Below are positions 3 through 16,453 of a stretch of 64,000 nt of DNA, piece after piece (position 1 is the stretch's first letter; each line of letters opens with the position of its first letter). This DNA is from an uncultured Desulfobacteraceae bacterium (GTDB taxonomy: Bacteria; Desulfobacterota; Desulfobacteria; Desulfobacterales; UBA5852). The notes beneath the pieces were generated by a model. It was given only the letters and a program-made list of their open reading frames with translations. It made no database searches and was not told where the DNA came from. The DNA lies in the NCBI GenBank assembly GCA_913060875.1, contig CAJXSL010000020.1:1-64000 (forward strand), written 5' to 3'. A program made the translations under genes and the position numbers.

Positions 3-1055
3 TGCGCCGCCGGCATCGATCTGCCCCGCCTGATCAAGGAAATCCACGCCCGTATCCAGGACGAGGAGGGCCACCCCATGCCAAGCCAACTCATGCGCCT
101 CATGCTCAAGAACCGCAAGCTCTTCCACGGCCTGCTGCGTTCGGCCCGCAGGGTCCAGAAGCCGCTTATCGGTGATGGTTATGTGCGCCATTTGCCTTTC
201 ATTTTTGCCAAGGATCACGATTTCCGGGCCCTGCCGGCGATTGCTGAAACCCCTTTCCGGGACCGCTGGCAAACCATGCGGCCCGAGGTGCCCCATCCAC
301 GCTATAAGGTCGCCCTGTTCTCCGGCTGCGTCCAGGACTTTGTCTATCCCGGACAACTGGAAGCCGGCGTGCACGTGCTGTCCCGGCTGCCCGTGGCCCT
401 GGACTTTCCCATGCAGCAGACCTGCTGCGGGCTGCCGCTCCAGATGATGGGCGAAAAGGAGGCCGCCCGCATGGTGGCCATCCAGAACATCGAGGCCTTT
501 GAGCAGCGGGATTGCGATTATATCGTGACCCTCTGCGCATCATGTGCTTCGCACCTTAAAAATGCCTTCCCGGAAATCCTCAAGGACGATCCGGCCATGG
601 CGGAACGGGCCAGACGGTTTGCCGCCAAGGTGATCACCTTCAGCCAATTTGTCCAGAACGTTATGGATATCGACCCGTCCCTGTTCAATGGGAACGGCCG
701 TCCCATCACCTATCATGCGCCCTGCCATCTTTGCCGGGGTCTGGGTGAACACCAGGCCCCCCAGGCCCTGATTCGCAAAGCGGGATTTGCGTATCGGCCG
801 GCCCAGGAAGAGGAGACCTGCTGCGGATTCGGTGGGACTTATTCCGGCAAATTCCCGCAAATTTCAGCGCAGATTCTGGCCCGCAAACTGGACGATATTA
901 AAACCACCGGGGCCGATCTGCTGGTCACCGAATGCCCCGGCTGTGTGATGCAGTTGCGCGGCGGGGTGGTGAAACGGGGCGATCGGATCGAGGTGCTTCA
1001 TATCGCCGAGGCGCTGGTGGGCAATCTTGTGGGCAAGGTTGATGATAAGCCTTGA
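3..1055 (+). CDS. Lactate-oxidation Fe-S protein, LUD/CCG type (5' truncated)
   Basis: The reading frame is open from the first base of the window, so the gene starts upstream and only its C-terminal part is visible. The first residues (CAAGIDLPRLI) look like the end of a CxxxC-type 4Fe-4S motif. Two CCG (heterodisulfide-reductase-like) domains follow: the first around CVQDF...QQTCCGLP and the second around YHAPCHLCRG...EETCCGFGG...ECPGC. Such domains bind 4Fe-4S clusters and pass electrons from lactate or glycolate dehydrogenases towards quinone or other carriers. The layout fits the fused LutB/LutA-like large subunit (often named LdhH) of sulfate reducers, but the diagnostic N-terminal LUD domain lies outside the window. 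A FAD dehydrogenase and a second Fe-S subunit follow on the same strand 45 nt later, supporting a lactate-utilisation operon. A GlcF-type protein is the alternative. Confidence 0.75.
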   Translation, partial: CAAGIDLPRLIKEIHARIQDEEGHPMPSQLMRLMLKNRKLFHGLLRSARRVQKPLIGDGYVRHLPFIFAKDHDFRALPAIAETPFRDRWQTMRPEVPHPRYKVALFSGCVQDFVYPGQLEAGVHVLSRLPVALDFPMQQTCCGLPLQMMGEKEAARMVAIQNIEAFEQRDCDYIVTLCASCASHLKNAFPEILKDDPAMAERARRFAAKVITFSQFVQNVMDIDPSLFNGNGRPITYHAPCHLCRGLGEHQAPQALIRKAGFAYRPAQEEETCCGFGGTYSGKFPQISAQILARKLDDIKTTGADLLVTECPGCVMQLRGGVVKRGDRIEVLHIAEALVGNLVGKVDDKP

Positions 1056-1100
1056 GATACTAAATGGAACTATTGTTTTGTCCAAAGAGAGGAGTACGTA

Positions 1101-2483
1101 ATGAAGGTCGCAGATATGATCCAGGAACTCAGGCAGGAACTTGGCCCGGAGGCCGTCAAAACGGAAAAGGAGGACCTGGCGTCCTACGCTTTTGATGCCA
1201 CCCCGGACATGCCGGTGGCCTATCCCGACGTGGTCGTTTTTCCGGAATGCAGCGCGCATGTCGAGGCCATCGTGGCCATTGCCAACCGCTATCAGGTTCC
1301 CGTCTATACGCGTGGTTCCGGCACCAATCTGAGCGGCGGAACCATTCCCCTGAAAAACGGCATCGTGATGGTCATGCTGAAGATGAACAAAATTTTGGAA
1401 ATCGACACCGAAAACCTGACCGCTACCTGTGAACCGGGGGTGATCATTGCCGACTTGAATGCGGCGGTGGGCGAATACGGCCTGATGTACCCGCCTGATC
1501 CGGGATCAGTGGATACGGCCACCATGGGCGGCAGTGTGGCTGAATGCTCCGGCGGCCTGCGGGGGCTCAAATATGGGGTCACCAAACATTACATCATGGG
1601 GCTCGATGTCATTTTAGCCAATGGGAAGAAGATGAGCTGTGGCGGCAAAACCGTTAAAAATGTCTCCGGTTATGACATGGTCAAACTGTTCGTGGGCGCC
1701 GAAGGCACCCTGGGTGTCGTCACCCGGATCATCTGCAAGCTCATTCCCACGCCTGAGGCGCGCAAGACGGCCACGGCCACCTTTCCATCCATTGACGGTG
1801 CCGCCAAGGCCGTGGCCGGGATCATCAAGAGCAAGGTCATTCCGGCCACGCTTGAAATCATGGACAAAGTCACCATTCAAACAGTTGAAAACTATCTCCA
1901 TCTTGGCCTGCCCACCGAATCTGAAGCCATTTTGGTCATAGAAGTGGATGGTTTGCCGGAAGTCGTGGAGAAGGAAGCCGAGGCTGTGGTGAAGGTTTGC
2001 GAGGCCAACGGCGGCGATGTGATTATCGCGGCCGATGACAAGGAACGCGATGGCCTTCTGGCGGCCCGGCGTGCGGCCCTGCCCGCCCTGGCGCAGCTCA
2101 GTCCCACCACGGTGCTTGAGGATGCCACGGTTCCACGCAACAAAGTCCCGGAGATGATCCATGCCATCCGCACCATTGCCGATAAATATGGTCTCACCGT
2201 CGGCACCTTCGGGCATGCGGGTGACGGCAACCTTCATCCCACCATTGTGACGGATGAAACCAATACCGAGGAAATGTCCCGGGTGCACAAAGCGGTAGAC
2301 GCTATTTTCGAAGCGGCGGTCAGTATGGGCGGAACCCTCTCGGGTGAACACGGCATCGGTATTGCCAAACAAAAATATTTGACCCAGGAATTCGGTGAAG
2401 CCGGGGTTGAGGCGCTTAAGGCCGTGAAACGGGCGCTCGATCCGAACAATATGTTGAATCCCGGAAAAATCGTGACGATTTGA
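1101..2483 (+). CDS. FAD-linked D-lactate/glycolate dehydrogenase subunit (GlcD type)
   Basis: This 460-residue flavoprotein belongs to the FAD-binding type 4 / vanillyl-alcohol-oxidase superfamily. The pyrophosphate-binding loop RGSGTNLSGG is at residues 71-80, a second FAD segment (MGGSVAECSGG) at about 142-152, and EGTLGVVT at about 201-208. The C-terminal catalytic cap carries GHAGDGNLHP (371-380) and GEHGIG (415-420). It should oxidise D-lactate (or glycolate) to pyruvate (or glyoxylate) and pass electrons to the Fe-S subunit encoded 9 nt downstream. ATG at 1101 is preceded by a clear AGAGAGGAG ribosome-binding site. Sequence alone does not separate D-lactate from glycolate as substrate. 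The neighbouring LutB/A-like gene and the sulfate-reducer-like gene content favour lactate. Confidence 0.88.
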   Translation: MKVADMIQELRQELGPEAVKTEKEDLASYAFDATPDMPVAYPDVVVFPECSAHVEAIVAIANRYQVPVYTRGSGTNLSGGTIPLKNGIVMVMLKMNKILEIDTENLTATCEPGVIIADLNAAVGEYGLMYPPDPGSVDTATMGGSVAECSGGLRGLKYGVTKHYIMGLDVILANGKKMSCGGKTVKNVSGYDMVKLFVGAEGTLGVVTRIICKLIPTPEARKTATATFPSIDGAAKAVAGIIKSKVIPATLEIMDKVTIQTVENYLHLGLPTESEAILVIEVDGLPEVVEKEAEAVVKVCEANGGDVIIAADDKERDGLLAARRAALPALAQLSPTTVLEDATVPRNKVPEMIHAIRTIADKYGLTVGTFGHAGDGNLHPTIVTDETNTEEMSRVHKAVDAIFEAAVSMGGTLSGEHGIGIAKQKYLTQEFGEAGVEALKAVKRALDPNNMLNPGKIVTI

Positions 2484-2492
2484 GAGGTGGCC

Positions 2493-3824
2493 ATGTCCGA
2501 GCAAACACTTAGGAAAGAGTTGGAAGCTGAAATCGCCAAATGCATGAAGTGCGGCAACTGCCAGGCGGTTTGCCCCATCTATAAGGAAGATATGGCGGAG
2601 TGGAGCGTGGCCCGGGGGAAGATCAAGCTGGCGCGGGATCTCCTTACAGGAAAATTGGAATATACGGACCGCATGGAGGCGATTTTCAGCCTTTGCCTGA
2701 CCTGCCAGGCCTGTGCGGAAAATTGCCCCTGCGGCGTGCGGCCGGACAAGATCATTCTGGCAACCCGCGCTATCATGGTGGCGAAAAAGGGACTGCCGGC
2801 CATCAAAAAGGCCGCCTTTAATTTTCTCGAGCACCCGGGCTCGTTCCGGTGGGGTATGCGGATGGGCAGCAAGCTCCAGGGGTTCGGTCTGAGAAAGGTA
2901 AACGATAGCGGACTCGTAAAGCCGCGGTTTCCCATCGGCCTGGATATGCGACGGGTCGTACGGCCCCTGGCCGCCAAATCGCTTCTGTCCCAGGTGCCGG
3001 AGGTGACCACCGTCGATAAGCCCAGGGGACGGGTGGTGTTTTTTACCGGCTGCATGCTGAATTATATCTATACGGATGCCGGCCAAGCGGTTATCGATGT
3101 ACTGGTCGCCAACAACATCGAGGTGGTGACACCGAAGGCACAGCACTGCTGCGGCATCCCGGTGATCATGAATGGTGACATGGAAACCGCCCGGAAGATT
3201 GCTCGATACAATATCGATGTGCTTTCCGGATACGAATGCGACGCGGTCATCACCCATTGCGGTACCGGCATCGATGCCTGGGTCCATCATTATCCGGAAT
3301 TGCTGGCCGAAGATGCCGCTTATGCCGAACAGGCCAGGGTCTTGTCTGCCAAGGCGTATGACCTGAGTCAGTATCTCGTGGATGTGGCCGGATTCCGGCC
3401 TCCCCAAAAAGCTGTGGATACGACCGTCACCTATCACGACCCCTGCCACATGGTCCGCGGTGTCGGGGTCAGCGCCCAGCCCCGGGAAATCATCCGGAGC
3501 ATCCCCGGTGTCGTATTCCAGGAGATGAAAAAACCGGACCGCTGCTGCGGCAGTGCCGGTTCCTTCAGCCTGACCCACTATAACTTATCCAGTAAGATAA
3601 GGGATCGGAAAATCAAGGATATTTTATCGGTAAGCCCGGATATGGTGCTGACGAGTTGCGGGGCTTGCCGTATGCAAATCGAGGAAGGCCTCTACCAGGC
3701 CGGGTGCAACGCCCCGGTTCAGCACGTGGCCGAACTTCTGGCCGGGGCCTATGCAAAGGAGAAAACGTTGTCCGGTGAAGAGGCTTCCCGCCTGGAGGAT
3801 ATGCCTGAAATGGCTGCTGGTTAG
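2493..3824 (+). CDS. Lactate/glycolate dehydrogenase Fe-S subunit (GlcF type)
   Basis: This protein of about 443 residues has two N-terminal 4Fe-4S motifs, CMKCGNCQAVCP (17-28) and CLTCQACAENCP (about 68-79). Two CCG domains follow: FFTGCMLNY...QHCCGIP and YHDPCHMVRG...DRCCGSAGS...SCGACRMQ. It is the electron-transfer partner of the FAD subunit immediately upstream. ATG at 2493 is chosen over an in-frame GTG at 2487 because GAGAGG at 2482-2487 is correctly spaced only for the ATG. The same operon has an additional CCG protein upstream, so this organism carries two related Fe-S arms, possibly for the two lactate isomers. The gene ends shortly before a strong hairpin terminator. Confidence 0.87.
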   Translation: MSEQTLRKELEAEIAKCMKCGNCQAVCPIYKEDMAEWSVARGKIKLARDLLTGKLEYTDRMEAIFSLCLTCQACAENCPCGVRPDKIILATRAIMVAKKGLPAIKKAAFNFLEHPGSFRWGMRMGSKLQGFGLRKVNDSGLVKPRFPIGLDMRRVVRPLAAKSLLSQVPEVTTVDKPRGRVVFFTGCMLNYIYTDAGQAVIDVLVANNIEVVTPKAQHCCGIPVIMNGDMETARKIARYNIDVLSGYECDAVITHCGTGIDAWVHHYPELLAEDAAYAEQARVLSAKAYDLSQYLVDVAGFRPPQKAVDTTVTYHDPCHMVRGVGVSAQPREIIRSIPGVVFQEMKKPDRCCGSAGSFSLTHYNLSSKIRDRKIKDILSVSPDMVLTSCGACRMQIEEGLYQAGCNAPVQHVAELLAGAYAKEKTLSGEEASRLEDMPEMAAG

Positions 3825-5444: not shown

Positions 5445-6329
5445 TTATAGATCAGGATGCTTATGTAGGTAGCGTTTAAGGGATGCATGGCTGGTTAAGG
5501 ATATATCGCTCATAGGAAAACGTCTGATCGGATAGGATTCAAGTTCCTTGTTTAAATGATCCTCCGAGTCATCGACGCTGCATTTGTTGAGAATCAGATA
5601 TGAGACGGCCATATCGATCTGGTTCAGTTTTGCACAAATGCGGACTGCTTCGGATTGGGAAAGGGCCTCATTGTTGACAACGAGATTGATCGAGGTGGTG
5701 GCCGCGCTGAAACGGGCCGCCTGTTTGTCGTTCGCTTCGATAAGGCTTTGCAGGCGATGCTTGACCTTGTCTTGTTCGATCTCTATCGATTTCCACTTGA
5801 TTTTTGAAATGATGGCTTTGCGTTCATAAATTTTGGTTCTGAGATTCAACAGTTCCTGCAACCATACACGCGTGATGACCGGCAGTGAAAAAAACTGCAA
5901 GGTCAGTGCCGTGGGCGGCATGTCGAAAATGACGTCGGTCATCCCCGCCGCCCGGGTAAGGGTATCCTCGAAAGCCAGCAGCAGCGCATATCCCTCCAGT
6001 CCCGGAGAAAACTTGAGGACATTGAAATGCTGCTGGATATTGAAGGCACTTTGATAGGCGTACTCTTTTTTCAGAAGATCGATACTTTGTTTCAGATAAG
6101 ATTGTACCCATCGATCCACATCGATTTCCTGTATGGACAGGTTCTCACTGATCTGTTTCGGTTTCGATGAGAAGGTCATGCTGAAAATGTCGCGCTGGTT
6201 ATGCGCCGGATCCAGGGATACCAGAAGGGTGCGACGGCCAATTTCAGCGCGTCGAATGGCTGTCAAAGCGGATGTGGTAGATTTACCGACGCCGCCCTTG
6301 CCAATAAAAAAATGAAGCATCGGTTGCAT
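5445..6329 (-). CDS. ArsA/Get3-type P-loop ATPase
   Basis: This protein of about 294 residues has the deviant Walker A of the ArsA/Get3/MinD class, GKGGVGKST, at residues 10-18. A switch-I-like LVSLDPAHNQRDIF (DPAH is the ArsA hallmark) and a Walker-B-like TDVIFDMPPTALTL follow. The cysteines that bind arsenite in ArsA are not evident, and no arsB, arsC or arsR gene is nearby, so arsenite export is unlikely. A role in membrane-protein handling (Get3-like) or in an unknown ATP-driven process with its neighbours is more plausible. I set the start at 6329 (AAGGAAATC before the ATG), not at the longer frame opening at 6404 that would run into the upstream gene. It lies 10 nt after a 92-residue gene and is the last gene of the cassette. 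Confidence 0.8.
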   Translation of the reverse strand: MQPMLHFFIGKGGVGKSTTSALTAIRRAEIGRRTLLVSLDPAHNQRDIFSMTFSSKPKQISENLSIQEIDVDRWVQSYLKQSIDLLKKEYAYQSAFNIQQHFNVLKFSPGLEGYALLLAFEDTLTRAAGMTDVIFDMPPTALTLQFFSLPVITRVWLQELLNLRTKIYERKAIISKIKWKSIEIEQDKVKHRLQSLIEANDKQAARFSAATTSINLVVNNEALSQSEAVRICAKLNQIDMAVSYLILNKCSVDDSEDHLNKELESYPIRRFPMSDISLTSHASLKRYLHKHPDL

Positions 6330-6339
6330 GATTTCCTTT

Positions 6340-6618
6340 TCAGTCAATCGAGAGAACCGAGAATAGATCGCCCAATGGATCATGGGCCGTGGTGATCCGG
6401 TCAAGCATAATCGAAAGGTCTTTGGTCATGAGGGGCAGCAACTCCATGCTGACGTGTATCGGGGGCGAAGGGATACCCATGAAGGCCCCCAGGACAAGGA
6501 TGCCAAAAATATTGTCGAGTTCTTCAATTTCGTACTCGATGGTTTCGACCGCCTTGGACCGCATGACCGTGTCAGCGCTTTGCCATAAAGATCGTACCCA
6601 ATTTTTAAGGGCTTTCAT
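6340..6618 (-). CDS. Small protein of unknown function in ArsA-ATPase cassette
   Basis: A 92-residue protein that I cannot assign to a family. An amphipathic, charged N-terminal half (basic, then an acidic EYEIEELD patch) precedes one hydrophobic segment, FGILVLGAFMGIP, followed by a proline-rich turn and a Leu/Met-rich helix. The start at 6618 lies 2 nt past the stop codon of the upstream membrane-protein gene, and the stop lies 10 nt before the ATPase start. This tight spacing suggests translational coupling and a functional link to both. It may be a peripheral or single-pass adaptor, which is inference from context only. Confidence 0.65.
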   Translation of the reverse strand: MKALKNWVRSLWQSADTVMRSKAVETIEYEIEELDNIFGILVLGAFMGIPSPPIHVSMELLPLMTKDLSIMLDRITTAHDPLGDLFSVLSID

Positions 6619-6620
6619 GA

Positions 6621-7127
6621 CTACACACCCTCTCCGTCCTGTTTTTCTATGGAGGACCCGCGGATCAACCGTAAAACGGGTCGTGGTTGGCTTTCTCCGG
6701 CAACGCGAAAAAGCCGGCGATCGAGGTCCAGGCGTTTCGAAGACGGGAAACTGCAATAAACGGCATAGAGTGCCATCAAAAAGGCGCCCGAGCGATAGAA
6801 AGGCGCTACGGCCAGGATATCCGCTATCATTGCCGCCACCAAAGCGGTCAAGCCGGTTATGATCAGGTTGCGCTCAAAAATGATGAATGCGCTTGCGTCA
6901 ACCCGGTTCTTTCTTCGCGAGACATGGGCAAACAGGGTGCGATAGACAATCGGTCCGGCCAGGGCGATGACGGCTGTTAGGATAAAAAGGAACGGCCCCC
7001 ACTCGTGAGAAACTTTCGCCGGCTGGGCCGCGATCACGCCGCAATGGCGCAAAACGCGGCCAATTGCCCAGAGCCCGGTGATGAAAACGAGGGAACGGAC
7101 ATAAACGTTTCTTAACTTGCGTTCCAT
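6621..7127 (-). CDS. Four-helix integral membrane protein, unknown function
   Basis: A 168-residue protein with about four predicted membrane segments (roughly residues 11-28, 44-64, 84-106 and 110-126). It has a basic N-terminus and a charged cytoplasmic-looking tail of about 40 residues. I recognise no catalytic motif or family signature. Its ATG lies inside the 3' end of the upstream GlgA-like gene (16-nt overlap), and its stop is 2 nt from the next gene, so it is embedded in a coupled cassette with a soluble ArsA/Get3-type ATPase. A membrane partner of that ATPase is a reasonable working hypothesis, but nothing in the sequence proves it. Confidence 0.7.
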   Translation of the reverse strand: MERKLRNVYVRSLVFITGLWAIGRVLRHCGVIAAQPAKVSHEWGPFLFILTAVIALAGPIVYRTLFAHVSRRKNRVDASAFIIFERNLIITGLTALVAAMIADILAVAPFYRSGAFLMALYAVYCSFPSSKRLDLDRRLFRVAGESQPRPVLRLIRGSSIEKQDGEGV

Positions 7128-7735
7128 TGGAACCTTTCATCTGACCGGCCAAAAATTCCGGGAATTCCTGTGAGAGAAAATGAACCAGAGGTTTGGCCAA
7201 AAGCCAGCACACCATTTCGGTTTTTACCCTTGGGCGGCTTCTGTGAGGATCGTGGAGGTGGCTTGCGGGCCTGTTTGGTAGGAGGTGGATCCTGTCCGGG
7301 CAAAGCCGATGGACGCATGGCGCGCAGGTCGAGGACACATCCCTGCCGCTGCTTGCGGCGCCACTCCCGTTTAAAATCAGGCGAAATTATGCTGCTCTGC
7401 TGACGCCCAAGGTTTTCCCAAAGCAGGGGATTGGTTGTTGTTATGAAAGACGAGGCAAAAATACCGCTCACCAAAAAATCAACGGGATTTTCACCTCTGC
7501 TTTCCTCATAATTAGAGGGCAGGCGGCGGAAATAAAGGTGATCACGATAATCCGGCAACGCCAAATGGGTATCCACCCCACAGGTGAATAATTGCCGGAC
7601 TATCGCTGAGGCGACATCGGCCAGATCCGTGGCCTTGGCGATGGGATAGGCGCCGTTGGGTCCCATGGTTTCCAGTAAAGCGGCAATTTCAGGGGTCACC
7701 ACCAGTACTTTGGGATGGTTCCTATGGGCTGCCAT
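7112..7735 (-). CDS. Protein with GlgA (starch synthase)-like N-terminus, truncated and degenerate
   Basis: The first 70 or so of about 207 residues resemble the GT5 N-terminal domain of bacterial glycogen synthase: a KVLVVTPEIA strand, then LADVASAIVRQL and HLALPDYRDHLYF. The ADP-glucose-binding KxGGLADV motif is KATDLADV here, so both glycines are lost. The remaining 400 or so residues of a real GlgA are absent, replaced by a Pro/Lys/Arg-rich tail without recognisable domains. Catalysis is therefore very unlikely. Either it is a repurposed sugar-binding fold or a decaying gene whose reading frame is still held by coupling to the next gene (16-nt overlap). The ATG at 7735 has GGGAGA upstream. 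A lone CBM48 glycogen-binding protein is encoded just upstream, which fits a glycogen-related origin. Confidence 0.6.
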   Translation of the reverse strand: MAAHRNHPKVLVVTPEIAALLETMGPNGAYPIAKATDLADVASAIVRQLFTCGVDTHLALPDYRDHLYFRRLPSNYEESRGENPVDFLVSGIFASSFITTTNPLLWENLGRQQSSIISPDFKREWRRKQRQGCVLDLRAMRPSALPGQDPPPTKQARKPPPRSSQKPPKGKNRNGVLAFGQTSGSFSLTGIPGIFGRSDERFQWNAS

Positions 7736-7805
7736 TGTTTTTTCTCCCAAACCGAAGGCTAACGATCGATTTCACAAGGTTGGTAACTTTACGACGGGGA
7801 GTCGG

Positions 7806-7844
7806 CGGCACACGGTGGATTGTCATTGGTTCCACCGTGTGCCG
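7806..7844. repeat. 14-bp perfect inverted repeat (hairpin)
   Basis: CGGCACACGGTGGA (7806-7819) is exactly complementary to TCCACCGTGTGCCG (7831-7844), with an 11-nt loop. It lies between the CBM48 gene and the GlgA-like gene, and no T tract follows on either strand. It is more likely an mRNA-stability or processing hairpin, or a REP-like element, than a classical terminator. Confidence 0.6.
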
Positions 7845-7858
7845 GTTTGGCGGCAATT

Positions 7859-8155
7859 CTATCGTGTGGCGACATGCAATACACTGTTGCGCGTTCCGAA
7901 AGCGTTTTGCAGGCTTTGGTCATTTTGGGGATCTTCCCGCCATTGGCCGTCGACCAGGAATTTGTACTCATAGGCGCCCGGCGGCAGCATGATGTTGCGT
8001 TGCCAGGCGCCGGTTGAGGTCTTCTGCATGGGGTGCTTGCGCGGATTCCAGTTGTTGAACGTGCCGACCAGCGCGACTTCGTGGGCCTCGACCGAATCCA
8101 GGGTAAAGCCCACTTTGCGTCGTTTTTTGGGCCGAGTTTTTTTTACCTTTGACAT
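7859..8155 (-). CDS. Stand-alone CBM48 (AMPK-type glycogen-binding) protein
   Basis: This 98-residue protein is essentially a single CBM48 / isoamylase early-set domain after a basic tail of about 15 residues. Family features are LVGTFNNWNPRKHPM, the LPPGAYEYKFLVDGQW core with its conserved aromatic residues, and DPQNDQSLQNAFGTRNSVL. Such domains bind glycogen or starch and are normally attached to branching enzymes or AMPK-beta; single-domain versions occur next to stress and glycogen genes. The start has a good AAGGAG 7 nt upstream. It is first in the cassette that continues with the GlgA-like protein, although the 123-nt gap contains a strong hairpin. It may act as a glycogen-targeting adaptor. 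Confidence 0.82.
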   Translation of the reverse strand: MSKVKKTRPKKRRKVGFTLDSVEAHEVALVGTFNNWNPRKHPMQKTSTGAWQRNIMLPPGAYEYKFLVDGQWREDPQNDQSLQNAFGTRNSVLHVATR

Positions 8156-13633: not shown

Positions 13634-16381
13634 TCATACAGTCACGTGTGTCCGTTGGTGCCGTGCCCCTGGTTCTGGCGTCGGCAGGCCGTTTGTCGGC
13701 ATTTCCGCCGTGATGGCGGGGATATCGATGGCCAGCTCGATCGCGCCCATCTCCCTGTTGTTGGTCTGTCGAAAACCCGCCTTGCGGCCCAGCCGCAGCA
13801 TCTGGGTATTGTCCGAAAGCACATAGCCCACCAATTTTTCGATTTTCAGTGTGCGTGCGGCCGCGATCAATTGGCGCAACAGCGCCGCACCGATGCCATG
13901 GCCGTGCAGCGCGTCGGCCACCATGATGGAGAATTCGGCCCGTGTCAGGTTGGCTTCACGAATCAAACGGGCGGCACCGAGCATTTCTTCTCCCGATGAT
14001 GACTGGGTAACCGCCACCAGGGCCATGTCGCGGTCGTAGTCAATTTGGGTAAACCGGGCGAGCATTTCCTTGGAAATACGCTTGAGGGGACTGAAAAAGC
14101 GGAAATAGATGCTTTCCCGGGAGAGTTTGCCGAACAGGTCGGCAAACAAACCGGCATCTTCCGGTTTGATGGGGCGAATCAGAATATGCAAACCGCTGCG
14201 AGTGACGGTCCCTGTCTCCAAATGATGCGGGTAGGGACTGATCACGAGGTGGTCATGTGCGGTTTCATGGGTTTGTTCCAGCCGAATACGGGCATCCACC
14301 GCCCGCAGGCGTGATCCGACAACCATGACCGGATTGATGTCGAGTTCGGCAATTTCGGGGAAATCGGTGACGAGGAGACCGATCCGAATCAGGGCTTCCT
14401 CGAGGTGCTCCATGGATACCGGCGATAGACCGCGGTACCCTTTCAGCAGTGCCGCAACGCGGGTGGCCTCGATCATCTGACGGGCCAGGGCACGGTTCAA
14501 GGGCGGCAAACTGATCACGCGATCCCGCAGGATCTCGGTGAGAACCCCGCCCGCGCCGAATATCACCACCGGGCCGAAAACAGGATCGCGGTGGCTGCCC
14601 AGAATAAGCTCGCAGCCGGCTTCCGGCAGCATGGCCTGGACGGATACGCCGGTGAAGCGGGCACCGGTCTTTTTCGCATTGGCCGTCAGGTCGTCAAAAG
14701 CCCGGGCAAGGGCTTGTGCGTTGGCGATGGACAGCCGTATGCCGTCAGCTTCGGTTTTATGAAGGATGTCCGGCGAAGCGATTTTCAGTACCACCGGGTA
14801 ACCGATCTGCTCGGCCAGATGAATGGCTTCGCCCCGGGTCCGGGCCAGTTTGACCGGGTTGACCGGGATGCCATAAGCGGCCAGGAGGGGCTTGGTGTCC
14901 AGTTCGCCCATTTCGTGGCAGTCTTCCTTCAGCATCCGGTCGATCCAGTCACGGGCACGCTTGCGATCCACCGTGAGATCGGCTGAAAACCGCCCGGGTA
15001 TTTCCTGCAGCATGTTATGGCGGGTTCGATGACGGTAAAGGTGCCAAAATGCGCGCACGGCCCTTTCCGGAGTGTCATAGGTGGGATACCCTTGGGTGTT
15101 GAACTGAAAAACGGCCTGGGCCACGGAGTTGCCCCCCATCCATACGGCGAATATCGGAAACTTGGGTTTTTGTTTAAGATAGGTGATCAGGGCGTTGGCC
15201 ACAGCACCGGAATTGCTCAATGCCTGGGGGATAAAGATGATGATCAAGCCGTCGATGCCGGGATCCGCCGCACAGATCTCGACGGCTTGCCGCCAGCGCT
15301 CCGGCGACGCATCGCCGATAATATCGATGGGATTGCCGCGGCTCCAGAAGGCTGGCAGGATGGCATCGAGGCGATCCATGGTTTCCTGGGAAAGGGCGGC
15401 CGGGACCAGATCCAGGCGCTCCATGGCATCCATGGCCATGACCCCGGGGCCGCCGCCATTGGTGATGATCGCCAGACGAGGTCCGGCGGGCAGGGGTTGT
15501 TTGGCAATCAGTTCGGTGCAGTCGAAAAGCTCTTCAATGGTGTCCACCTGGGTGATGCCGGCCCGTGCGAAAGCGGCCCGGTAAACATCGTCGGCGCCGG
15601 CCATGGCGCCGGTGTGGGAAAAGGCTGCCGCGGCCCCGGCCCGGGAACGGCCCGCTTTCAGCGCAATGATCGGCTTGATGCGGGAAACCGCACGGGCCGC
15701 ACTCATGAATTTGCGGGCCTGGGTGATGTTCTCGATATAAAGGACAATGGCGCGCACTTCCCTGTCGCCGCAGCAATGATTGAGTAAATCGCCGAAATCC
15801 ACGTCCAGCATCGAGCCGATACTGATAAAATGCCGGAATCCGATTTGCTCGCGGCTGGCGCGGTCAAGGATGGCCAGACACATGGCCCCGCTTTGGGAAA
15901 TAAAGGCGATGTTGCCGGCAGGCGGCATACGGTCCAGAAAGCTGGTGTTCAGGTTGGCCGCCGTGGAAATGACGCCTACGCAGTTGGGTCCGATCAGGCG
16001 GACAGCGCCCCGACGGGCGGCTGCCAGAATGGCTTGCTCCCGTTGGGCGCCGGCCGGACCGGTCTCCTTGCCGCCGGCGGAAAGGACGATGGCATTGCCG
16101 ATCCCGGATTGGGCGCAGTCCTCGATGACGCCTGGCACGGCATCGATGGGGGTGGCGACCACCGCCAGATCGATGGCCTTGCCAATGGCGGTGAGTTTTG
16201 GGAAAGCCGGTAGGCCGTTGATTTTATCTCGGACGGCATTGACGGGATAAATCGGCCCCGTGAAGCCACTGGAAATAAGATTGCGAATGACGGCGTAGCC
16301 GACACGGCCCGGCGTATCACTGGCCCCCACGATCGCAACCGATTGCGGCGCAAAAAATTTTTCCAAGGATGGCATCGTCAT
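13634..16381 (-). CDS. ADP-forming acetyl-CoA synthetase fused to GNAT acetyltransferase
   Basis: This 915-residue protein has a CoA-binding domain (about 5-130, with VAIVGASDTPGRVGY), a succinyl-CoA-ligase-like domain (about 150-460), an ATP-grasp beta part (about 490-710) and a C-terminal GNAT domain (about 735-895). His256 in GAAAAFSHTGAMAG matches the phosphohistidine of ADP-forming acetyl-CoA synthetases. That residue is lost in the purely regulatory Pat/YfiQ homologues, so this enzyme may both convert acetyl-CoA + ADP + Pi to acetate + ATP and acetylate proteins. The start at 16381 follows AAAGGAAATATC; a longer frame to 16447 would overlap the sigma-54 promoter. It is first in a run leading to receiver, CBS-ACT, Usp and PilZ genes. 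Confidence 0.88.
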   Translation of the reverse strand: MTMPSLEKFFAPQSVAIVGASDTPGRVGYAVIRNLISSGFTGPIYPVNAVRDKINGLPAFPKLTAIGKAIDLAVVATPIDAVPGVIEDCAQSGIGNAIVLSAGGKETGPAGAQREQAILAAARRGAVRLIGPNCVGVISTAANLNTSFLDRMPPAGNIAFISQSGAMCLAILDRASREQIGFRHFISIGSMLDVDFGDLLNHCCGDREVRAIVLYIENITQARKFMSAARAVSRIKPIIALKAGRSRAGAAAAFSHTGAMAGADDVYRAAFARAGITQVDTIEELFDCTELIAKQPLPAGPRLAIITNGGGPGVMAMDAMERLDLVPAALSQETMDRLDAILPAFWSRGNPIDIIGDASPERWRQAVEICAADPGIDGLIIIFIPQALSNSGAVANALITYLKQKPKFPIFAVWMGGNSVAQAVFQFNTQGYPTYDTPERAVRAFWHLYRHRTRHNMLQEIPGRFSADLTVDRKRARDWIDRMLKEDCHEMGELDTKPLLAAYGIPVNPVKLARTRGEAIHLAEQIGYPVVLKIASPDILHKTEADGIRLSIANAQALARAFDDLTANAKKTGARFTGVSVQAMLPEAGCELILGSHRDPVFGPVVIFGAGGVLTEILRDRVISLPPLNRALARQMIEATRVAALLKGYRGLSPVSMEHLEEALIRIGLLVTDFPEIAELDINPVMVVGSRLRAVDARIRLEQTHETAHDHLVISPYPHHLETGTVTRSGLHILIRPIKPEDAGLFADLFGKLSRESIYFRFFSPLKRISKEMLARFTQIDYDRDMALVAVTQSSSGEEMLGAARLIREANLTRAEFSIMVADALHGHGIGAALLRQLIAAARTLKIEKLVGYVLSDNTQMLRLGRKAGFRQTNNREMGAIELAIDIPAITAEMPTNGLPTPEPGARHQRTHVTV

Positions 16382-16453
16382 GATATTTCCTTTCAGGGCG
16401 AAAGCGGCCGCTAGGGGTTCCCGGTTGCGTTTCGGAGCGGCACCCATTCATTG

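What the first reader, a model, noticed from the sequence alone, without database searches (positions are those of the whole stretch)
5445..8155. Compact cassette: lone CBM48, GlgA-like remnant, four-helix membrane protein, 92-residue protein and ArsA/Get3-type ATPase
Four of the five genes are joined by overlap or gaps of 2-10 nt, so they are made together, yet no arsenic, tail-anchor or glycogen pathway gene is nearby. The ATPase lacks the expected metalloid context. A soluble P-loop ATPase coupled to a membrane protein, a tiny adaptor and glycogen-type domains is not a system I recognise. It is the best candidate here for something undescribed, perhaps an energy- or storage-sensing membrane machine.
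Basis: partly seen in the sequence, partly recalled or inferred. Interest (0 to 1): 0.62.

Follow-up and report, generated by a model that had tools for sequence, protein, structure and literature searches.

The report
CstA transporter with attached ATPase module
The five genes are the tail of a nutrient-uptake operon: a carbon-starvation (pyruvate-type) transporter with a small linker protein, a four-helix membrane protein and an ATP-splitting enzyme, a known but untested pairing in a new arrangement, while the glycogen-type genes are local extras.

Summary
CstA (PF02554, 8204-9943) lies 48 nt upstream on the same strand. The conserved unit is CstA - four-helix protein (TM168) - 92-residue protein (p92) - ArsA-type ATPase. 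In 55 public loci found through p92, ArsA follows p92 in 55 of 55. CstA precedes it in 51 of the 52 loci with room. In 192 genomes of the class, 28 of 29 with p92 also carry CstA. The lone CBM48 and GlgA-like genes are not part of it: in the sister species the slot holds CBM48-PFK-FBPase, and most relatives have nothing there.

Castillo & Saier (2010, PMC2963123) already described CstA-CstX-ArsA operons and proposed that ArsA energises CstA; p92 is a CstX homologue. New here: TM168, replacing archaeal CstY (42 loci TM168, 10 CstY, none both); block inheritance, shown by the genome's second, separately related four-gene copy; and CstX-like proteins beside FeoB and ABC genes. Best reading: CstX docks a single-domain ArsA-type ATPase on a pyruvate-type CstA carrier and powers or gates it. 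Identity is strong; coupling and substrate are inferred. New variant of a known, experimentally untested kind.

The parts
   Evidence: PF02554 3.4e-132; 30% identity over 582 alignment columns with E. coli CstA; upstream of p92 in 51 of 52 loci with room
7859..8155 (-). Lone AMPK-type CBM48 (98 aa); insert between cstA and TM168, not conserved with the core
   Evidence: PF16561 1.5e-16; in this slot only in the window and its sister species among the loci read
7112..7750 (-). GlgA N-domain fragment (212 aa) with an internal deletion and no catalytic C-terminal domain; insert
   Evidence: similar CBM48 + short GlgA pairs at three other loci
6621..7127 (-). TM168: four-helix membrane subunit specific to this architecture; takes the place of CstY
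   Evidence: A2/A5 alignments; AF2 pLDDT 87.5, pTM 0.76, four long helices; present in 42 of 55 loci, never with CstY
6340..6618 (-). cstX homologue (p92, 92 aa): helical hairpin around a VLGxFxGxPSPP turn; proposed coupler
   Evidence: NF041419 29.4 bits, below cut-off 80; 56 of 56 members hit NF041419; A1/A4; AF2 two-helix hairpin, pLDDT 75.8, pTM 0.37
5445..6329 (-). arsA-type single-domain ATPase (294 aa from ATG 6329; TTG 6404 possible)
   Evidence: TIGR00345 148.6 bits and PF02374 7.2e-44; Walker A GKGGVGKS, SLDPA switch I, variant switch II DMPPTALT, no CxxC

Best explanation
This is the accessory half of a CstA-type uptake operon. CstA is a secondary, proton-coupled importer of pyruvate or a similar small carbon source. 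CstX (p92), a short helical hairpin at the membrane, joins CstA to a homodimer of the single-domain ArsA-type ATPase; TM168 is a four-helix membrane subunit that stabilises or orients the complex, taking the place CstY has in the archaeal form. ATP hydrolysis then either drives CstA (as ArsA turns ArsB into a pump) or gates it according to cell energy. SHOWN here: gene identities, conserved order, linkage, intact ATPase motifs, inheritance as a block, stand-alone CstAs in relatives. INFERRED: physical complex, coupling to ATP, substrate, direction. The CBM48 and GlgA-like genes are lineage inserts, perhaps co-expressed because imported pyruvate feeds gluconeogenesis and glycogen. My estimates: identity about 0.95, ATP acting on CstA (driving or gating) about 0.6 with driving alone about 0.4, pyruvate as substrate about 0.6.
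For: Order CstA-TM168-CstX-ArsA in 42 of 55 loci (TM168 seen; CstA out of reach in a few) and CstA-CstX-ArsA-CstY in 10 of 55, none with both; TM168 also in Acidobacteriota, Calditrichota and Melioribacteraceae records. Class survey of 192 genomes: CstA in 66, p92 in 29, both in 28 (Fisher p 2.2e-14), 28 same-contig pairs 214-1745 nt apart. Own genome: exactly two CstA genes, both with the full module; each copy's four proteins have nearest relatives in different, mutually consistent sets. Twelve CstA loci of the class without p92 show no TM168, p92, ArsA or YbdD-like gene nearby, so the carrier can stand alone. TM168-type CstAs form one clade, sister to stand-alone CstAs. ATPase: Walker A 56 of 56, SxD switch I 56 of 56. 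Pyruvate: the second copy sits behind LytTR and 5TMR-LYT kinase genes, the type (BtsSR) that senses pyruvate in E. coli (PMC10653868, abstract start in the search listing); D. vulgaris CstA mutants have a pyruvate-specific phenotype (PMC10102598, passage); E. coli CstA needs a small partner, YbdD, and is proton-driven (PMC5847655 and PMC7730263, passages).
Against: No experiment ties ATP hydrolysis to CstA in any system I found. E. coli CstA is energised by the proton gradient without an ArsA, so an ATPase is not needed for transport as such. CstX-like proteins also occur without CstA in view, so CstX need not be CstA-specific. LytS and LytTR hits lie together upstream of CstA in only 3 of the 40 public loci with 2.6 kb visible, and E. 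coli CstA (701 aa) is a distant relative. In L063 TM168-CstX-ArsA have no CstA in 4.5 kb upstream, though the genome has one on another contig. The distance correlations have no housekeeping-gene control.
Confidence: 0.6

Rival explanations
1. The ATPase is a Get3-like targeting factor or chaperone that inserts or assembles CstA, TM168 or CstX in the membrane; ATP is used in biogenesis, not in transport.
For: The family spans Get3 (TIGR00345 above cut-off); best PDB matches include archaeal Get3-like proteins 3ug6 and 3zq6; dedicated small membrane partners in the operon.
Against: CxxC absent in 56 of 56; the switch II PTGH of the structures aligned reads PTA[LV] in 41 of 43 TM168-type and PTGL in 10 of 10 CstY-type ATPases. 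p92 is not tail-anchored by sequence: its hydrophobic stretch is mid-protein and reaches the 1.6 threshold in only 12 of 56 members. Stand-alone CstAs occur without it. The segment matching a Met-rich stretch of M. jannaschii Get3 has 0-1 Met against 4, but similar mean hydropathy, so that test is inconclusive.
Confidence: 0.15
2. The ATPase-CstX pair is a nucleotide-dependent sensor or brake: it reports energy state or closes CstA under energy excess, without driving transport. (This is the gating half of the best explanation, set apart here as a rival to driving.)
For: CstA works on the proton gradient alone in E. coli; many relatives use CstA alone; carbon-starvation setting; universal stress protein genes beside the operon.
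Against: Intact catalytic motifs in 56 of 56 and consistent pairing fit an engine at least as well; nothing here separates gating from driving.
Confidence: 0.2
3. One reading: CBM48, GlgA-like, TM, p92 and ATPase form one glycogen- or energy-storage sensing machine.
For: CBM48 also sits in this slot in the sister species, there followed by PFK and FBPase; L037 has a CBM48 gene about 1.2 kb downstream of ArsA.
Against: CBM48 between CstA and TM168 in only 1 of 55 public loci, the sister species; the GlgA ORF is internally deleted; the module is complete without either in the genome's second copy.
Confidence: 0.04
4. A metalloid (arsenite/antimonite) pump.
For: ArsA family membership (PF02374 7.2e-44).
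Against: Fails the ArsA equivalog cut-off (78 of 650 bits); single domain; CstA as partner; PMC2963123 reports no mixing of ars and cst operons in its set (passage).
Confidence: 0.02

Closest known systems
CstA-CstX-ArsA(-CstY) operons, Castillo & Saier 2010 (PMC2963123)
   Same: CstA permease, ~90-aa CstX and single-domain ~300-aa ArsA homologue in one operon; proposed ArsA energising of CstA with CstX as linker
   Different: Adds the four-helix TM168 between CstA and CstX and lacks CstY; CstA is a different subfamily from the CstY-type, sister to stand-alone CstAs; their Table 1, clusters 14-18, lists no delta-proteobacterial member
cory-CC-star protein, NCBIfam NF041419
   Same: All 56 p92 relatives match it (best 3e-8)
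   Different: 29.4 bits against a cut-off of 80 for the window; p92 ends in ...SID, no C-terminal Cys-Cys (that the name means a Cys-Cys end is my reading)
E. coli CstA-YbdD and BtsT (pyruvate/H+ symport)
   Same: CstA family; small partner protein needed for uptake
   Different: No ATPase in the operon; YbdD (PF04328) shows no detectable similarity to p92
ArsA-ArsB arsenite pump
   Same: A soluble ArsA ATPase serving a secondary carrier that also works alone (mechanism recalled)
   Different: Two-domain ArsA; different carrier; no CstX
Get3/TRC40
   Same: ATPase family and nucleotide motifs
   Different: No CxxC; altered switch II; linked to a transporter operon

Membership tests
CstA-CstX-ArsA operon (PMC2963123) | CstA permease in the operon | tested here: met
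   PF02554 442.4 bits, 48 nt upstream of CBM48 on the same strand
CstA-CstX-ArsA operon (PMC2963123) | CstX of about 90 aa beside ArsA | tested here: met
   p92 is homologous (A1 profile 7e-23) to the 95-aa gene between CstA and ArsA in a Staphylothermus MAG, L078, whose CstA-CstX-ArsA-CstY operon fits their description of cluster 14
CstA-CstX-ArsA operon (PMC2963123) | CstX has one transmembrane segment | tested here: inconclusive
   Max 19-residue KD mean 1.53 in the window, at least 1.6 in 12 of 56; AF2 hairpin of low pTM
CstA-CstX-ArsA operon (PMC2963123) | Single-domain ArsA of about 300-340 aa | tested here: met
   294 aa, one domain
CstA-CstX-ArsA operon (PMC2963123) | CstY (stated there for five archaea only, not required) | tested here: not met
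   No CstY profile hit in any of the 42 TM168-type public loci or in copy 2
CstA-CstX-ArsA operon (PMC2963123) | ArsA energises CstA | not testable with these tools
   Needs transport assays; a proposal in that paper too
cory-CC-star equivalog NF041419 | Curated cut-off of 80 bits | tested here: not met
   29.4 bits
ArsA arsenical pump ATPase TIGR04291 | Curated cut-off of 650 bits, two-domain protein | tested here: not met
   78 bits, 294 aa
TRC40/GET3/ArsA family TIGR00345 | Curated cut-off of 135 bits | tested here: met
   148.6 bits
Get3 tail-anchor targeting factor | Zn-binding CxxC at the dimer interface | tested here: not met
   0 of 56 ATPases; some Get3s also lack it (PMC10248533 passage)
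Get3 tail-anchor targeting factor | Binds tail-anchored clients | not testable with these tools
   Needs binding assays
CstA family PF02554 | Gathering score of 27 bits | tested here: met
   442.4 bits
YbdD/YjiX small partner PF04328 | Profile similarity of p92 | tested here: not met
   No Pfam hit; hhalign probability 0.4 with 6 columns against YbdD

The most novel reading that the evidence does not exclude
CstX/cory proteins are general couplers between membrane permeases and P-loop NTPases: with ArsA-type ATPases they turn the pyruvate carrier CstA into an ATP-driven or ATP-gated importer, with TM168 and CstY as interchangeable membrane adaptors, and relatives serve FeoB GTPases and ABC importers.
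Probability: 0.25. Interest if true: 0.75.

Novelty: new variant of a known kind. Interest (0 to 1): 0.45.

Why it matters
ArsA-ArsB is the textbook case of a soluble ATPase serving a secondary carrier. If the CstA operons work the same way for a central metabolite, bacteria and archaea have a second, widespread ATP-assisted importer class, predicted in 2010 and, as far as my searches show, untested since. The TM168 form lies next to a sister clade of stand-alone CstAs, which gives a clean comparison, and the genome's two copies invite a direct genetic test.

Tried and rejected
TM168 as a detached C-terminal part of long CstA: hhalign against E. coli CstA gave probability 0.3 over 26 columns; rejected. 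p92 as YbdD: rejected. Anti-phage defence: only a P-loop-level hit for the ATPase (PADLOC 1e-4) and none for the other three proteins given. Known fold for TM168: no Foldseek match below E 1.9 and no VIA Z above 6.9; absence of a match is not proof of a new fold. Promoters and terminators: counts at the level of shuffles, so no transcript limits can be given. A hairpin at 7806-7844 is not repeated elsewhere in the window. Paper searches: 'cory-CC-star' 0 papers; at least 4 of CBM48/ArsA/ATPase/glycogen/Get3 0; carbon starvation protein + ArsA 2; CstA + 'ArsA family ATPase' 0; CstX + CstA + ATPase 1, the 2010 paper; some searches gave background. That TM168 is undescribed and that the 2010 proposal is untested rest on these searches alone.
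Full report
What is there. Searches confirm the five minus-strand ORFs between 8155 and 5445. From the likely starts, GlgA-like and TM168 overlap by 16 nt, TM168 and p92 are 2 nt apart, p92 and ArsA (ATG 6329) 10 nt apart, and CBM48 is 108 nt from the GlgA-like ORF. Pfam and NCBIfam give AMPK-type CBM48, a weak GlgA N-domain match, no confident match for TM168, a sub-threshold NF041419 'cory-CC-star' match for p92, and TRC40/GET3/ArsA for the ATPase.

The conserved unit. ORFs around p92 homologues in relatives showed CstA-TM168-p92-ArsA again and again. In all 55, ArsA follows p92 on the same strand. CstA was found in 51. Of the other four, L040, L041 and L066 end at the contig edge; L063 has 4.5 kb upstream without CstA, but its genome has CstA on another contig. 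TM168 is present in 42 of 55; L041 and L066 are cut before it, L064 lacks it, and the other ten carry CstY downstream of ArsA instead. No locus has both. Records of Desulfobacterota, Acidobacteriota, Calditrichota and Melioribacteraceae carry TM168; Desulfurococcales, KSB3, Limnochordaceae, Syntrophaceae and others carry CstY.

Linkage in whole genomes. In 192 genomes drawn from the class, CstA occurs in 66 and p92 in 29. I counted the overlap from the two lists: 28 have both (Fisher p 2.2e-14); the exception, G160, has p92 268 bases from a contig start. Twenty-eight same-contig pairs in 27 genomes lie 214-1745 nt apart; G108 has them on different contigs. A phylum draw of 395 genomes gave p92 in 22. 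Its 23 loci split into 6 of TM168 type, 10 with CstY, 2 CstA-CstX-ArsA with no CstY in view, and 5 with neither CstA nor ArsA in view.

History. Twelve CstA loci of the class that lack p92 (twelve chosen of the 38 such genomes) have no TM168, p92, ArsA or YbdD-like gene within the 6-8 kb read. In a 61-row tree the TM168-type CstAs (39 rows plus L064) form one clade (SH-aLRT 97), sister to ten stand-alone CstAs, while the eight CstY-type CstAs form another (100); the tree is a quick one and warns of long branches. The genome has exactly two CstA genes, both with the module. Copy 2 (contig C1, L008) resembles Desulfotignum-type records most closely in TM168, p92 and ArsA, and in CstA L069 and the same set, while the window copy resembles another set, so the four genes travel together. 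Distances correlate (r 0.49-0.77, 0 of 999 permutations as high), without a housekeeping control.

The inserts. In the sister species the CstA-TM168 interval holds CBM48, PFK (PF00365) and FBPase (PF01950); in copy 2 it holds nothing. Of the 55 public loci only the sister species has CBM48 there. The GlgA-like ORF matches full GlgAs in two separated pieces, hence an internal deletion, and intact GlgAs exist at C3 and C1. CBM48 with a short GlgA-like gene recurs in G003:C69 (378 aa), G026:C8 (180 aa) and G005:C4 (293 aa), so the pair may be a small glycogen-associated unit of its own, but it is not part of the ATPase system.

The proteins. The ATPases keep Walker A and the switch I aspartate in 56 of 56, lack CxxC in 56 of 56, and carry PTA[LV] (41 of 43 TM168 type; two not matched by the pattern) or PTGL (10 of 10 CstY type) in switch II, where the Get3 and ArsA structures aligned have PTGH. 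p92 has a conserved core E..IF..LVLG.F.G.PSPP and is modelled as a helical hairpin of modest confidence. TM168 is modelled with confidence as a four-helix protein without a convincing PDB match.

What is known. Castillo & Saier 2010 (PMC2963123; abstract, passages, section 3.2 and Table 1 read) report 26 CstA-ArsA operons, 24 with CstX, some archaeal ones with CstY, and propose that ArsA energises CstA, possibly through CstX. The Staphylothermus MAG locus L078 fits their description of cluster 14, and G187 (L165: CstA-CstX-CstX-ArsA-ArsA) fits their paired-ArsA cluster 15. Of 29 loci read from a second phylum scan (61 of 395 genomes matched), 15 show CstA with CstX-like and ArsA genes, 2 ArsA without CstA in view, 2 CstA without ArsA in view, 1 FeoB and 9 none of these. 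No delta-proteobacterial protein stands in their clusters 14-18 and TM168 is not mentioned in what I read. E. coli CstA imports pyruvate, needs YbdD and runs on the proton gradient (PMC5847655, PMC7730263, passages).

Mechanism. The parallel with ArsA-ArsB, a carrier that works alone in some organisms and with a soluble ATPase in others (recalled), makes ATP driving or gating of CstA the most likely use of this ATPase, with CstX as the contact. A Get3-like assembly role is the main rival outside that reading. The substrate is most likely pyruvate: the family function, the D. vulgaris phenotype (PMC10102598 passage), the LytS/LytTR pair before copy 2, and FAD/Fe-S genes of lactate/glycolate-oxidase type at 78-3824 in the window (the lactate label is my reading) all point that way, but none is proof; LytS and LytTR hits occur together upstream in only 3 of 40 public loci with room.

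Beyond CstA. CstX-like proteins also occur where no CstA is in view: directly downstream of FeoB (TIGR00437 above cut-off for L160; Pfam FeoB domains for both) in G337 and G508, after an ABC ATPase gene in L171 and L173, and as orphans. This goes against the 2010 statement that CstX never occurs without CstA, if these count as CstX, and is the basis of the novel case.

Noticed in passing
L160:5240-9141 and L163:54-2469 (G337, G508): A CstX-like 98-101 aa protein lies directly downstream of FeoB, in L160 followed by ABC metal-transporter genes: a CstX relative with a GTPase-type transporter and no CstA in view.
   Followed up: partly
L171:433-1794, L173:415-1794: CstX-like protein starts 6 nt after an ABC ATPase gene of an apparent importer.
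   Followed up: no
L008:2511-8733 (G000:C1): Second four-gene module in the same genome, preceded by LytTR regulator and 5TMR-LYT kinase genes.
   Followed up: yes
window 7112-8155; L152, L153, L154: CBM48 with a short GlgA-like protein without a full catalytic part recurs at four loci; L152 has a PPDK-family gene (PF01326) about 1.1 kb away.
   Followed up: partly
L165:4199-8682 (G187): Doubled form CstA-CstX-CstX-ArsA-ArsA, common in the second phylum scan.
   Followed up: partly
window 7806-7844: Perfect 14-bp inverted repeat with 11 nt between its arms, between CBM48 and the GlgA-like ORF.
   Followed up: partly
L063:3104-5250: TM168-CstX-ArsA without CstA beside a divergent MFS transporter gene.
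   Followed up: partly
L010:2462-2710: CstA-like fragment (82 aa) just before a full CstA; it resembles the N-terminus of stand-alone CstAs.
   Followed up: no
G537, G484, G467, G502, G220, G416: Several CstX-like matches are marked with one in-frame TGA or TAG; the profile may only run past the stop.
   Followed up: no
window 78-3824 and 13634-16447: FAD/Fe-S oxidase genes of lactate or glycolate type, and an acyl-CoA ligase with a GNAT domain, flank the operon.
   Followed up: partly
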